From NCBI RefSeq assembly GCF_900115195.1, contig NZ_FOVO01000013.1, forward strand, positions 1 through 64,000: DNA of 64,000 nt, given 5' to 3'. The notes below the pieces were generated by a model. It searched no databases, had not been told where the DNA came from, and saw nothing but the letters and a program-made list of their open reading frames with translations. This document shows positions 25,596 through 30,488 of this stretch, piece after piece; position 1 is the stretch's first letter; every line of letters begins with the position of its first letter. The position numbers were made by a program, and so were the translations under genes. This DNA is from Xenorhabdus japonica (GTDB lineage: Bacteria; Pseudomonadota; Gammaproteobacteria; Enterobacterales; Enterobacteriaceae).

Positions 25596-25856
25596 ATGTT
25601 AGATTTTAATCATACAAAAAATATTGATTATCAGAATGAATCTAACTGGATTGTATTGAAAGGCACTTCTAAACAGAAATATCAATGCTATTTGATATGT
25701 AAGAATAAAGAAGAAGATATTAAAGTAATTCCTCACATCAACAAGGACAAGAAAAAAACTATAACTTTAGAAAATCGCCTTGTTGTAAAAAACAGATACA
25801 TGAGAAAACTGGTAAATTATATTAAGACCATAGCAAAAAAAATAATAGCCAAATAG
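25596..25856 (+). CDS. Hypothetical lysine-rich protein
   Basis: An 86-residue protein that I do not recognise. It is very basic (many Lys, ending KTIAKKIIAK), has one likely beta-rich half (NWIVLKGTSKQKYQCYLICK) and no signal peptide or membrane segment. A strong ribosome binding site (AGGAGAAAAATT) precedes the ATG, which supports it being a real gene. It is AT-rich, faces opposite to both neighbours yfeY and ypeA, and sits where E. coli carries yfeZ, so it is probably a lineage-specific acquisition. Confidence 0.6.
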   Translation: MLDFNHTKNIDYQNESNWIVLKGTSKQKYQCYLICKNKEEDIKVIPHINKDKKKTITLENRLVVKNRYMRKLVNYIKTIAKKIIAK

Positions 25857-26395: not shown

Positions 26396-27374
<979 letters not shown>

Positions 27375-27595: not shown

Positions 27596-27626
27596 ACATC
27601 TAAAGACAAAAAAGGGTATTATTATG
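27596..27626 (+). promoter_or_regulatory. Conserved leader of the protease paralogues (copy 1)
   Basis: ACATCTAAA followed by AAAAAGGGTATTATTATG precedes the first protease. Related leaders precede the second protease (28890-28916) and the propeptide-only gene (30222-30248), so the ribosome binding region was duplicated together with the genes. Confidence 0.55.
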
Positions 27627-28688
27627 AGCAATAATCAAACTAATATATATAGCTTAATTCCTCCATTTGTTTTAGAACATATCTCTGAAGATTGTGATAC
27701 ATGTACTAATCAATATGTATTAAAAACATTAGATCACGTTTATCAATTAATGCATGCTCCTGCTGAAGAAACTATATCTCAACAGGAAAACCTAGCAGGC
27801 AAAGATGATAAACTGCACCGTACTATCTATAATGCTAAAAATAAAGAGAAGTTTCCTGGGGAAGAATTATCTCGCAGTGAAGGAATGTCAGAAAGTTCAG
27901 ATGTTGCAGTTAATGAAGCATATGATTATCTTGGCAAGACTCATGAGTTCTATAAAACAGTTTTCGGTCGCAATTCTCTTGATAACAAAGGGATAAAGTT
28001 AATTGCTACAGTACACTATGGTACAAACTATCTGAATGCATTCTGGTCCAGAAAACAAATGGTATTTGGTGATGGTGATGGAAAATATTTCAATCGTTTT
28101 ACCTCTGCCATTGATATCATAGCCCATGAATTGACGCATGGTGTCATAGAAAGTGAAGCAGGACTGGATTATATCTATCAATCTGGTGCGTTGAATGAAT
28201 CTATCGCAGATGTATTTGGTATTATGGTTAAACAATATTTCAATAACCAAAAAGCCGATGAGTCAAATTGGTTATTAGGCGAAGGTTTATTAGGAGAAAA
28301 ATTTAATCCAGATAACAAACCCGATGTCGCTTTACGCACCTTTATTAAACCAGGAACAGCATTTTCTGGAGATAAACAAGTTGGTCATATGGATCAATAT
28401 GAAGAACTTCCTTTCATCATTGACAATGGAGGAGTTCACATATATTCAGGCATTCCCAACAGAGCATTTTATTTAGTAGCAATGGAATTAGGAGGCTATA
28501 CCTGGGAAAAAGCGGGTAAGATTTGGTATAAAGCATTATTGGATAATCGCCTGTCTTCAGATGCAGATTTTGAGGATTTCGCCAAACTAACCGTTGATAA
28601 TGCAGAGCATTTATTTGATAAAAAAACAGCAAACATTGTCAGTAACTGCTGGAAAGAAGTTGGCATTCTACTTTCCAAAAAAAATTAA
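27624..28688 (+). CDS. Protealysin-like M4 metalloprotease (PrtS-type), copy 1
   Basis: A 354-residue thermolysin-family zinc protease. The short N-terminal protealysin-type propeptide (residues 1 to about 68, with IPPFVLEHI and the helix YVLKTLDHVYQLM) has no signal peptide, as usual for this group. The catalytic part has HELTH (zinc ligands His168 and His172, Glu169 the base), the third ligand Glu192 in NESIAD, HYGTNYLNAFW for substrate binding, and His272 in GGVHIYSG. All catalytic residues are present. It resembles PrtS of Photorhabdus, a secreted protease reported to trigger melanization in insects. AAGGGTATTATT precedes the ATG. It is 67-70% alike in many stretches to the next gene; the exact figure was not calculated. 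Confidence 0.93.
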   Translation: MSNNQTNIYSLIPPFVLEHISEDCDTCTNQYVLKTLDHVYQLMHAPAEETISQQENLAGKDDKLHRTIYNAKNKEKFPGEELSRSEGMSESSDVAVNEAYDYLGKTHEFYKTVFGRNSLDNKGIKLIATVHYGTNYLNAFWSRKQMVFGDGDGKYFNRFTSAIDIIAHELTHGVIESEAGLDYIYQSGALNESIADVFGIMVKQYFNNQKADESNWLLGEGLLGEKFNPDNKPDVALRTFIKPGTAFSGDKQVGHMDQYEELPFIIDNGGVHIYSGIPNRAFYLVAMELGGYTWEKAGKIWYKALLDNRLSSDADFEDFAKLTVDNAEHLFDKKTANIVSNCWKEVGILLSKKN

Positions 28689-28913
28689 ATTAATTAAATA
28701 TCAATTAAAATTATTACCAGTAACATCAATATAATATTGAAAATAGATAATAAAGGGTTAAGGACAACCCTTTATTATCTTTATAAATTAACATATCAAA
28801 CCAAAAAAAATCACTCATTAGTAGCCAATTATACCATTTAGACTCATAATTAACATAGGCTACAATATATTTAACACCTAAATATTTATAACATCTAAAA
28901 TAAGGATATTATT

Positions 28914-29972
28914 ATGCGAAAAAATCAAGATAAACTAAACAAATCCGGTATCATTCCACCATATTTATTAGAATATGTTGTTAAAATCTGTGGTCAATTC
29001 GATAAAGCACATATATTAAAAACATTAGATCATGTTTACAATCTAATGAATAACCCTGTTGAAATAGATACTTTAGCTCATAGATATCAGCCAGGTGCTG
29101 ATAATAAATTAAATAGAACTATTTACAATGCTGAACATGATAATCAATATCCAGGAAAAATATTAATTTTACGCGAAGGCATGACTGTAATCGATGATAT
29201 TTCAGCCACTGAAGCTTATAATTATCTTGGTAAGACATATGAATTTTATAAGGAAATTTTTGGTCGTAATTCAATTAATAATCAAGGTATTAAATTAGTT
29301 GCCACTGTTCATTATCAGAAAAATTATATGAATGCATTTTGGGATAATAATCAAATGATCTTCGGTGATGGTTATGCTCCTTACTTTAATAATTTTACAT
29401 CGTGTATTGATATTACTGCACATGAATTAACCCACGGAGTAATTGAAAGTGAAGCAAATCTTGATTATGCCTATCAGTCAGGTGCATTAAACGAATCTAT
29501 CTCAGATGTATTCGGTATTATGGTGAAACAGTATGCTAATAACCAAAAAGTCAACGAATCTGATTGGTTGATAGGTCAAGGGATATTTGGTCCTGCACTC
29601 AACCCGGACAATGACCCTAATATTGCCTTGCGCTCATTCAAAAATCCTGGTGCAGCAAATCCAAAAGATAACCAAGTTGGTCATATGGACCAATATCAAG
29701 ATTTATCCGTCAGAGATGACAACGGGGGTGTCCACAAATATTCAGGCATTCCTAATAAGGCATTCTATTTATTGGCAATCACATTGGGAGGATATTCATG
29801 GGAGCAAGCCGGAAAAATTTGGTACAACACATTATTGGATAAACGTTTATCCCATAAAGCCAGTTTTAATGATTTTGCACAGCTAACCGTTGACAATGCT
29901 AATATATTATTTGATAAGAAAATTTCAAATATTGTGACTCATTCGTGGAATCAAGTCGGAATACTGCTTTAA
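28914..29972 (+). CDS. Protealysin-like M4 metalloprotease (PrtS-type), copy 2
   Basis: A tandem paralogue of the preceding gene, 352 residues. The propeptide has IIPPYLLEYVVKICGQFDKA and the helix HILKTLDHVYNLM. The active site is complete: HELTH (His170, Glu171, His174), Glu194 in NESISD, and His274 in GGVHKYSG. No signal peptide or C-terminal binding domain is seen. The two copies differ in surface loops and in the propeptide linker, which suggests old rather than recent duplication. A 225-base AT-rich spacer and its own leader (ATAAGGATATTATTATG) argue for separate or repeated control signals. Confidence 0.93.
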   Translation: MRKNQDKLNKSGIIPPYLLEYVVKICGQFDKAHILKTLDHVYNLMNNPVEIDTLAHRYQPGADNKLNRTIYNAEHDNQYPGKILILREGMTVIDDISATEAYNYLGKTYEFYKEIFGRNSINNQGIKLVATVHYQKNYMNAFWDNNQMIFGDGYAPYFNNFTSCIDITAHELTHGVIESEANLDYAYQSGALNESISDVFGIMVKQYANNQKVNESDWLIGQGIFGPALNPDNDPNIALRSFKNPGAANPKDNQVGHMDQYQDLSVRDDNGGVHKYSGIPNKAFYLLAITLGGYSWEQAGKIWYNTLLDKRLSHKASFNDFAQLTVDNANILFDKKISNIVTHSWNQVGILL

Positions 29973-30245
29973 TCATTAAAGACCAGGGAAGGTCTTGATT
30001 ATATTTAAATATCCTACACTTCCTCTACTCACGCCTACCGTCTGAACCAGATTTTTAATCTTTTTTAAACTTACAAATCATCAATAAAACACCATCCTCT
30101 ACTTAATTAAATCAATTATTTTACTACTTTAACTCATATCATAAAAATTTACATTTTTAGTAGTGACTAACATGGTTAATTTAGTTACCATTTAGGTTAA
30201 TCAAATATAAACCAACACGACAACATATACAAAAAAGGTATTATT

Positions 30246-30488
30246 ATGAGTAACAATAAATCTAGCAAACAAAATATAATCCCTCCTTATTTATTGGAAT
30301 ATATTGCAAAAACCTGTGATGATAATGATAAAGAAGGTATTTTGAATACATTAGAGCATGTTAATAAACTAATGGAAAAATCAATCTATGAAGCCTCCTC
30401 AGATCCTAAAGATGACCCTGTATTCTATAAAAATAGAAATATTCCTAAACCAGAAGGAAAAGGCAGCTATCAATTATCAGGAAAATAA
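30246..30488 (+). CDS. Free-standing protealysin propeptide-like protein
   Basis: An 80-residue protein that matches only the N-terminal propeptide of the two upstream proteases: NIIPPYLLEYIAKTCDDNDK and the helix GILNTLEHVNKLM align with residues 12-48 of copy 2, including the shared cysteine. The later part (YKNRNIPKPEGKGSYQLSGK) falls at the propeptide/enzyme junction. There is no HExxH or other catalytic sequence. It has the same leader (AAAAAAGGTATTATTATG). Propeptides of this family inhibit and help fold their enzymes, so this could be an inhibitor or folding helper acting in trans; a decayed third protease gene is the alternative. It is not similar to emfourin, the known inhibitor beside Serratia protealysin. 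Confidence 0.7.
   Translation: MSNNKSSKQNIIPPYLLEYIAKTCDDNDKEGILNTLEHVNKLMEKSIYEASSDPKDDPVFYKNRNIPKPEGKGSYQLSGK

What the first reader, a model, noticed from the sequence alone, without database searches (positions are those of the whole stretch)
30246..30488. A free-standing protealysin propeptide next to two complete proteases
The 80-residue protein aligns only with the N-terminal propeptide of the two upstream M4 proteases (shared IIPPYLLEY, shared cysteine, shared NTLEHV/KTLDHV helix) and stops at the enzyme junction. Propeptides of this family are known to inhibit and fold their own enzyme. A separate copy could act in trans as an inhibitor, chaperone or immunity-like factor for the two secreted proteases. 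I know of no described case of this exact arrangement. A decayed third protease is the alternative.
Basis: partly seen in the sequence, partly recalled or inferred. Interest (0 to 1): 0.72.

Follow-up and report, generated by a model that had tools for sequence, protein, structure and literature searches.

The report
Free-standing protease propeptide in inhibitor's place
Xenorhabdus bacteria carry a small intact gene made of only the built-in safety catch (propeptide) of a protease, next to one or two complete proteases and in the place where related bacteria keep a different inhibitor gene, so it is probably a stand-in inhibitor; its function has not been tested.

Summary
Window 30246-30488 encodes 80 aa matching Pfam's protealysin propeptide (PF16485, E 1.7e-15) with no catalytic domain, downstream of two complete M4 proteases. 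The genus is Xenorhabdus. It is not a decayed third protease: an intact 63-80 aa version sits at the same place in 28 of 30 Xenorhabdus genomes; in the other two the interval is not assembled. Its core is under purifying selection (omega 0.19, 2dlnL 136 against omega 1), and no catalytic remnant follows it in 28 of 28. It is intact in all six genomes where one of the two proteases is missing or broken.

The main new point is the locus. In 26 of 27 sampled non-Xenorhabdus genomes with such a protease, the next gene is emfourin, this enzyme's known protein inhibitor, and der lies beyond. Xenorhabdus has no emfourin (0 of 30 over cut-off); the free propeptide stands in its place. Best reading: a liberated propeptide acting in trans as inhibitor of the neighbouring proteases. 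Inhibition is inferred, not shown; a trans foldase is the main rival. Free-standing propeptide inhibitors are known in eukaryotes; I found none described for the protealysin type.

The parts
30246..30488 (+). SA: free-standing protealysin-type propeptide, 80 aa
   Evidence: PF16485 E 1.7e-15; intact in 28 of 30 genus genomes; omega 0.278 whole ORF, 2dlnL 162
30273..30383 (+). SA residues 10-46: conserved propeptide core, with IIPPYLL (PPL motif, residues 11-17) and the TL-HV helix
   Evidence: omega 0.189, 2dlnL 135.6; I11, P14, L17, C24, T35, L36, H38, V39 invariant in 16 of 16 aligned
30384..30485 (+). SA residues 47-80: variable tail, predicted disordered at its end
   Evidence: omega 0.324; residues 62-80 pLDDT under 50; no convincing similarity to the proteases
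27624..28688 (+). p1: protealysin-like M4 protease with propeptide
   Evidence: PF02868, PF01447, PF16485
28914..29972 (+). p2: protealysin-like M4 protease with propeptide
   Evidence: PF02868, PF01447, PF16485
30905..32395 (-). der (GTPase) gene, the conserved neighbour that marks the locus
   Evidence: ORF; found beyond SA in 27 of 28 Xenorhabdus loci and beyond emfourin or the protease in 26 of 27 other genomes; name recalled
26454..27374 (+). hemF-like gene, conserved upstream neighbour in Xenorhabdus
   Evidence: present in 30 of 30 Xenorhabdus loci; name recalled
30186..30245 (+). 5' leader of SA, similar to the leaders of p1 and p2
   Evidence: mean identity over the last 20 nt 62% (p1) and 53% (p2), 25 genomes each; shifted control 29% and 27%

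Best explanation
A protealysin-type propeptide became a gene of its own before the sampled Xenorhabdus species split, and took the place and probably the job of emfourin. SHOWN: a conserved, selected, intact gene that codes only for the propeptide plus a short tail, beside the proteases, kept when either protease is lost, in a genus without detectable emfourin, at the locus where other genera have emfourin. INFERRED: the protein binds mature or maturing p1 and p2 in the producing cell the way the attached propeptide does, with Ile-Ile-Pro-Pro of its PPL motif in the primed side of the active-site cleft and its helical hairpin over the cleft. It thereby silences protease that has matured too early, and might protect sister cells when protease is released on lysis. 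The protease may trim the free protein just before Ile11, leaving a product-like inhibitor.
For: Intact in 28 of 30 genomes, two not assembled. Core omega 0.189, 2dlnL 135.6, like the attached propeptides at 0.164 and 0.211. Emfourin over cut-off in 0 of 30 Xenorhabdus but in 26 of 27 other genomes with this protease, each time directly behind it, with der beyond in 26 of 27: same locus. Intact where only p1 (G004, G005) or only p2 (G021, G026) is left, or one is broken (G008, G024). It scores higher against PF16485 than the attached propeptides in 27 of 28 genomes. Emfourin inhibits protealysin in the same gene arrangement (PMC9505478, passages). Protealysin first cuts itself directly before the PPL motif (PMC6778150, passages); SA keeps Ile-Ile/Val-Pro there in nearly all sequences while residues 2-9 show no detectable constraint (omega 0.77, 2dlnL 0.5, 8 codons, little power). 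A free-standing propeptide beside its protease genes is a proven inhibitor in Plasmodium (PMC6993865, abstract and passages).
Against: No binding or inhibition data. The replacement is one event in one genus, so the emfourin contrast is a single evolutionary observation; G431 shows that emfourin can be missing with no free propeptide in its place. p1 and p2 already have propeptides of their own. SA is not in a tight operon: 273 nt separate it from p2 here and a weak terminator-like repeat lies between them (3 such sites found in the region, 1.4 expected). The SA model is of low confidence (pLDDT 61), Foldseek gave no significant match and the precursor model failed, so the docking is not modelled.
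Confidence: 0.6

Rival explanations
1. Trans-acting foldase: SA helps the catalytic domains of p1 and p2 to fold or stay competent, making up for drifting attached propeptides; inhibition is secondary.
For: A listed reference title says that the propeptide is required for formation of active protealysin in vivo (reference list of PMC6778150; paper not seen). Attached propeptides score lower than SA against PF16485; the p2 propeptide of G024 has lost the PP motif and G015 has an M4 protease without a recognisable propeptide.
Against: In most genomes p1 and p2 keep selected propeptides of their own (omega 0.164 and 0.211). The slot is that of an inhibitor, not of a chaperone.
Confidence: 0.18
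2. Another regulatory role: SA competes with the attached propeptides, acts as a sacrificial substrate that delays maturation, or has been put to a use unrelated to these proteases.
For: Little is known; the variable tail and separate spacing leave room.
Against: Found beside at least one such protease in 28 of 28 genomes, and the enzyme-facing PPL motif is retained.
Confidence: 0.15
3. Decayed third protease.
For: SA is a paralogue of the propeptides and shares their leader, so a protease gene that lost its catalytic part is a plausible origin.
Against: Open in 28 of 28 assembled intervals; omega 0.278, 2dlnL 162; no catalytic remnant downstream in 28 of 28 (best E 0.77), while the same profile finds the real p1 remnants in G024 at 2.4e-12 and 2.4e-20.
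Confidence: 0.03

Closest known systems
Emfourin (M4in, PF20242) of the protealysin operon, Serratia proteamaculans
   Same: Small protein encoded directly behind the protealysin-like protease at the same chromosomal locus (der beyond); proposed as an immunity-like inhibitor (PMC9505478, passages).
   Different: No sequence relation: SA does not match PF20242 at E up to 1. Emfourin is a dedicated inhibitor family; SA is the enzyme's own propeptide.
Protealysin propeptide (PF16485; precursor structure 2vqx)
   Same: Homologous over 38 residues, PPL motif and TL-HV helix; a propeptide profile that includes SA matches 2vqx chain A at E 2.5e-16.
   Different: Not attached to a catalytic domain; has a tail of its own.
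SUB1-ProM of Plasmodium and other stand-alone subtilisin propeptide-like inhibitors (MEROPS I9)
   Same: A free-standing propeptide-like protein in a syntenic place beside protease genes, shown to inhibit in trans (PMC6993865, abstract and passages).
   Different: Serine protease, eukaryote, different fold, exported; inhibition measured there, not here.
Propeptide-like cathepsin inhibitors such as Drosophila crammer (I29)
   Same: A propeptide turned independent inhibitor (PMC3551606, search listing).
   Different: Cysteine protease family, eukaryotes.
Stand-alone PepSY proteins (YpeB, SspA)
   Same: Bacterial proteins made of a domain also found in M4 propeptides, proposed to regulate proteases or other enzymes (PMC4282423, passages).
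   Different: PepSY belongs to the long thermolysin-type propeptides, is not matched here, and is exported; that paper calls the role of catalysis-free members unclear.

Membership tests
Protealysin propeptide family (PF16485) | Score over the curated cut-off | tested here: met
   57 bits against 28.1; 16 of 16 SA proteins scanned match
Protealysin propeptide family (PF16485) | PPL motif and TL-HV helix | tested here: met
   I11, P14, L17, T35, L36, H38, V39 invariant in 16 of 16; first proline P13 is Ser in one of 28, G024
Protealysin propeptide family (PF16485) | N-terminal part of an M4 protease | tested here: not met
   No catalytic model matches the ORF; none follows it in 28 of 28. So: the domain yes, a protease no.
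Emfourin (PF20242) | Match to the family model | tested here: not met
   No match of SA at E up to 1; no genome of the genus over cut-off, 0 of 30
Emfourin (PF20242) | Gene directly behind a protealysin-like protease, with der beyond | tested here: met
   SA in 28 of 28, der in view in 27; emfourin in 26 of 27 other genomes. A likeness of position, not of family.
Free-standing propeptide inhibitors (functional class) | Independent gene of propeptide sequence without catalytic domain, conserved under selection | tested here: met
Free-standing propeptide inhibitors (functional class) | Inhibits the cognate protease in trans | not testable with these tools
   needs purified proteins
Stand-alone PepSY proteins | PepSY domain and export signal | tested here: not met
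   No PepSY model among the Pfam matches at E up to 1; no signal peptide seen by eye

The most novel reading that the evidence does not exclude
Before the sampled Xenorhabdus species diverged, their ancestor exchanged the dedicated protealysin inhibitor emfourin, in place, for a liberated copy of the protease's own propeptide, which now serves as the common trans inhibitor (possibly an immunity protein) of two duplicated proteases. This would be a first free-standing propeptide of the protealysin class, and a natural case of an inhibitor replaced by a part of the zymogen.
Probability: 0.5. Interest if true: 0.75.

Novelty: new variant of a known kind. Interest (0 to 1): 0.62.

Why it matters
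Protealysin and emfourin have been proposed as an effector-immunity-like pair (PMC9505478, passages). A genus that lacks emfourin and keeps a propeptide-only gene in its place makes the unrelated replacement of a protease inhibitor directly testable, and would be a rare bacterial case of a propeptide turned into an independent protein. It would also be a small natural inhibitor of thermolysin-like proteases, for which few protein inhibitors are known (recalled).

Tried and rejected
Decayed third protease: rejected by conservation, selection and lack of a catalytic remnant.

Divergent emfourin hidden in Xenorhabdus: six weak PF20242 hits (E 0.019 to 0.088), none over cut-off, five of them in 1050-aa frames and none beside the proteases.

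Free-standing propeptides elsewhere: outside the genus every PF16485 hit over cut-off lies in a frame of 343 aa or more, except G440 (146-aa frame, 49% complete genome whose protease, emfourin and der frames are all broken), among 394 genomes of the order, 148 relatives, 369 of the class and 398 of the phylum (the sets overlap). Below the cut-off two hits in 44- and 45-aa frames were listed in the phylum, and the SA profile gave one 63-aa frame with a stop inside (G433, E 0.003); not followed up.

Tail of SA from the start of the catalytic domain: it beats shuffles (at most 10 of 200 as high) in 5 of 27 genomes against p1 and 0 of 27 against p2; G001 fell out through my motif pattern. So not shown.

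Structure of the p2 precursor: failed, pLDDT 38.5 with 12 sequences. Foldseek with the SA model against the PDB: 36 matches at E up to 10, best 2.2. The single ORF against PDB sequences gave nothing relevant; the ten-row profile found 2vqx, and also two designed proteins at about 1e-7 with no stretch passing on its own.

Tree of the cores: 92 rows and 36 columns, too few for the deep forks; SA is one side of a branch with support 5/0. 7 of 25 p2 rows were dropped by my motif pattern and G440 by hand; outside rows come from 19 of the 27 genomes, because I fetched 20.

The paper on the 2vqx structure (PMC2804358) is not held; what I say about it is recalled. Papers: 'emfourin' is in 2 held papers; none of the listed rows shows Xenorhabdus together with protealysin or emfourin (30 of 50 and 8 of 1,067 papers were listed). 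The stand-alone propeptide cases among the abstracts shown were eukaryotic.

Full report
WHAT IS THERE. Window 30246-30488 (+) encodes 80 aa. Pfam recognises residues 9-46 as the protealysin propeptide (PF16485, E 1.7e-15, 57 bits against a cut-off of 28.1) and nothing else above its cut-off. Upstream lie two complete protealysin-like M4 proteases, p1 (27624-28688) and p2 (28914-29972), each with propeptide and both catalytic models. In its own genome the ORF matches only itself and the propeptides of p1 and p2. The genome is Xenorhabdus: the five named relatives found are all Xenorhabdus, the nearest X. yunnanensis at 91% identity. I call the small gene SA.

IT IS A CONSERVED GENE. Of 30 genomes of the genus, 28 have an intact SA ORF of 63-80 aa. 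In the other two, G009 and G015, p1 lies within about 130 bp of a contig end and der is on another contig that ends 240 and 351 bp past der, so the interval is not assembled; the 351 bp of G015 hold no recognisable SA. All 28 are at the same place: hemF, protease(s), SA, then der on the other strand. der is in view in 27; in G016 the contig ends first. On a tree of hemF and der, SA is present on both sides of the midpoint-placed deepest split, so it was most likely in the common ancestor of the sampled species.

SELECTION. A codon model (my own script; one omega, F3x4, fixed hemF+der tree, 28 taxa) gives omega 0.278 for the whole SA (2dlnL 162.0 against omega = 1), 0.189 for residues 10-46 (135.6), 0.324 for the tail (40.6) and 0.765 for residues 2-9 (0.5; 8 codons, little power). 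Columns filled in under half of the rows were left out. The same cores inside p1 (27 taxa) and p2 (25 taxa) give 0.164 and 0.211, and the catalytic parts (every third codon) 0.077 and 0.099. The free propeptide is about as constrained as the attached ones.

NOT A DECAYED PROTEASE. A profile of the catalytic domains, run without filters on six frames of the stretches between the last protease and SA and between SA and der in 28 genomes, finds nothing after SA better than E 0.77. Before SA it finds only the insertion-split p2 of G008. As a positive control the same profile finds the real remnants of p1 in G024 (2.4e-12 and 2.4e-20). Whether the SA tail comes from the first part of a catalytic domain is not shown.

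IT OUTLIVES EITHER PROTEASE. At this locus G004 and G005 have only p1, and G021 and G026 only p2. G024 has p2 and fragments of p1; G008 has p1 and a p2 split by about 1 kb of inserted DNA. SA is intact in all six. Its partner is therefore likely whichever protease is present.

THE SLOT BELONGS TO EMFOURIN. Emfourin is the protein inhibitor encoded in the protealysin operon of Serratia proteamaculans. It binds the active-site region 1:1; without it extracts cleave more actin (65% against 40%) and optical density falls earlier (PMC9505478, passages). Pfam's emfourin model is over its cut-off in 0 of 30 Xenorhabdus genomes. I took all 27 non-Xenorhabdus genomes with a PLN_propep match. 26 of 27 have emfourin over cut-off. 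From the coordinates, in all 26 it is on the same strand and its match begins 1,037-1,097 nt after the start of the propeptide match, which is directly behind the protease. In 26 of 27, der lies beyond on the opposite strand, within 8.3 kb and in six within 0.4 kb (in G440 der is in fragments beside it). This is the same locus as in Xenorhabdus, with SA where emfourin stands elsewhere. The exception G431 has the protease next to der with neither emfourin nor a free propeptide. The contrast rests on one genus, so it is one evolutionary event.

RESTRICTED TO XENORHABDUS IN WHAT WAS SEARCHED. Among 394 genomes of the order, 148 relatives, 369 of the class and 398 of the phylum (overlapping sets), every PF16485 hit over cut-off outside the genus lies in a frame of 343 aa or more, except that of G440, a 49%-complete genome with broken frames. 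Weak hits in short frames that I did not follow: two below cut-off in the phylum (44 and 45 aa) and one of the SA profile with a stop inside (G433, E 0.003).

CLOSER TO THE FAMILY THAN THE ATTACHED ONES. Against PF16485 SA scores 47.0-74.5 bits (28), p1 propeptides 36.4-51.5 (27) and p2 propeptides 29.1-47.7 (25; p2 of G024 not found). SA is above both in 27 of 28 genomes; in G025 p1 is ahead by 0.4 bits. In a tree of 92 propeptide cores the non-Xenorhabdus rows and p1 are each a well-supported group; SA is one side of a branch without support (5/0), near p2. Origin from a duplicated protease gene is further suggested by a shared 5' leader: over the last 20 nt SA is on average 62% identical to p1 and 53% to p2 (25 genomes each), against 29% and 27% with shifted controls.

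HOW IT PROBABLY WORKS. [quoted passage not shown] the first self-cut falls directly before the PPL motif (PMC6778150, passages). From memory, the precursor structure 2vqx shows the propeptide filling the cleft with the PPL motif in the S' subsites; a ten-row propeptide profile that includes SA matches that chain (E 2.5e-16). SA keeps the motif (I11, P14, L17 invariant in 16 of 16) and the second helix. I infer that SA docks on mature p1 and p2 in trans as the attached propeptide does before cleavage, and keeps prematurely active enzyme silent in the cell. The lack of detectable constraint before the cleavage point fits an inhibitor that may be trimmed to start with Ile11. The predicted model (helices 14-23 and 26-50, loose tail, pLDDT 61) is compatible but adds little; Foldseek found nothing significant and the precursor model failed. 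By eye none of p1, p2 and SA has a signal peptide, so they probably share a compartment; 'secreted' is not supported. SA is not in a tight operon here: 273 nt separate it from p2. A trans foldase remains possible (see rivals).

COMPARISON AND NOVELTY. Free-standing propeptides that inhibit in trans are known for subtilisins (SUB1-ProM of Plasmodium, in a syntenic place beside protease genes; PMC6993865, abstract and passages) and cathepsins (PMC3551606, listing). Stand-alone PepSY proteins are a bacterial precedent from the other M4 propeptide class (PMC4282423, passages). For the protealysin class I found no description of a free-standing copy in the searches; the library lacks most subscription journals and long lists were cut, so this is weak evidence of absence. 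NCBIfam has no matching model. By sequence SA is a member of the protealysin propeptide family; it is not an emfourin; it probably works like one. I rate it a new variant of a known kind.

Noticed in passing
L126:4032-5075 (-), genome G015 contig C92: A further M4 protease (347 aa, about 50% identical to p1) away from der, whose N-terminus is not recognised as a propeptide (no PF16485 hit): an apparently propeptide-less protease in this genus.
   Followed up: partly
L073:4824-5894, genome G008: About 1 kb of DNA inserted into p2, splitting it, while p1 and SA are intact. The insert was not identified.
   Followed up: no
L087:2195-2482, genome G024: Fragments of a decayed p1 upstream of an intact p2 and SA; the p2 propeptide there has lost the PP motif.
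   Followed up: partly
L108 (genome G431), between the protease and der: Protealysin-like protease with neither emfourin nor a free propeptide behind it.
   Followed up: partly
SA residue 24 (window 30315-30317) and equivalents: A cysteine present in 28 of 28 SA proteins and common in p1 and p2 propeptides is glycine in 18 of 19 propeptides of other genera; role unknown.
   Followed up: no
loci of other genera between emfourin and der, e.g. L106, L109, L118: A short minus-strand ORF of about 75-85 aa with CxxC pairs (zinc-ribbon-like, by eye) lies between emfourin and der in several genera; no such ORF of 50 aa or more is listed between SA and der in the window.
   Followed up: no
window 25596-25856 (+): An 86-aa ORF without any Pfam match above a cut-off, between annotated-looking genes upstream of hemF.
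   Followed up: no
window 28745-28780 and 29979-29996: Terminator-like inverted repeats after p1 (called on the minus strand) and after p2; 3 such sites in the region against 1.4 expected from shuffles, so weak. Would fit separate transcription of the three genes.
   Followed up: no
L074, genome G010, between SA and der: The SA-der interval is about 2.0 kb in G010, against 120-540 bp in the other genomes with der in view; content not examined.
   Followed up: no
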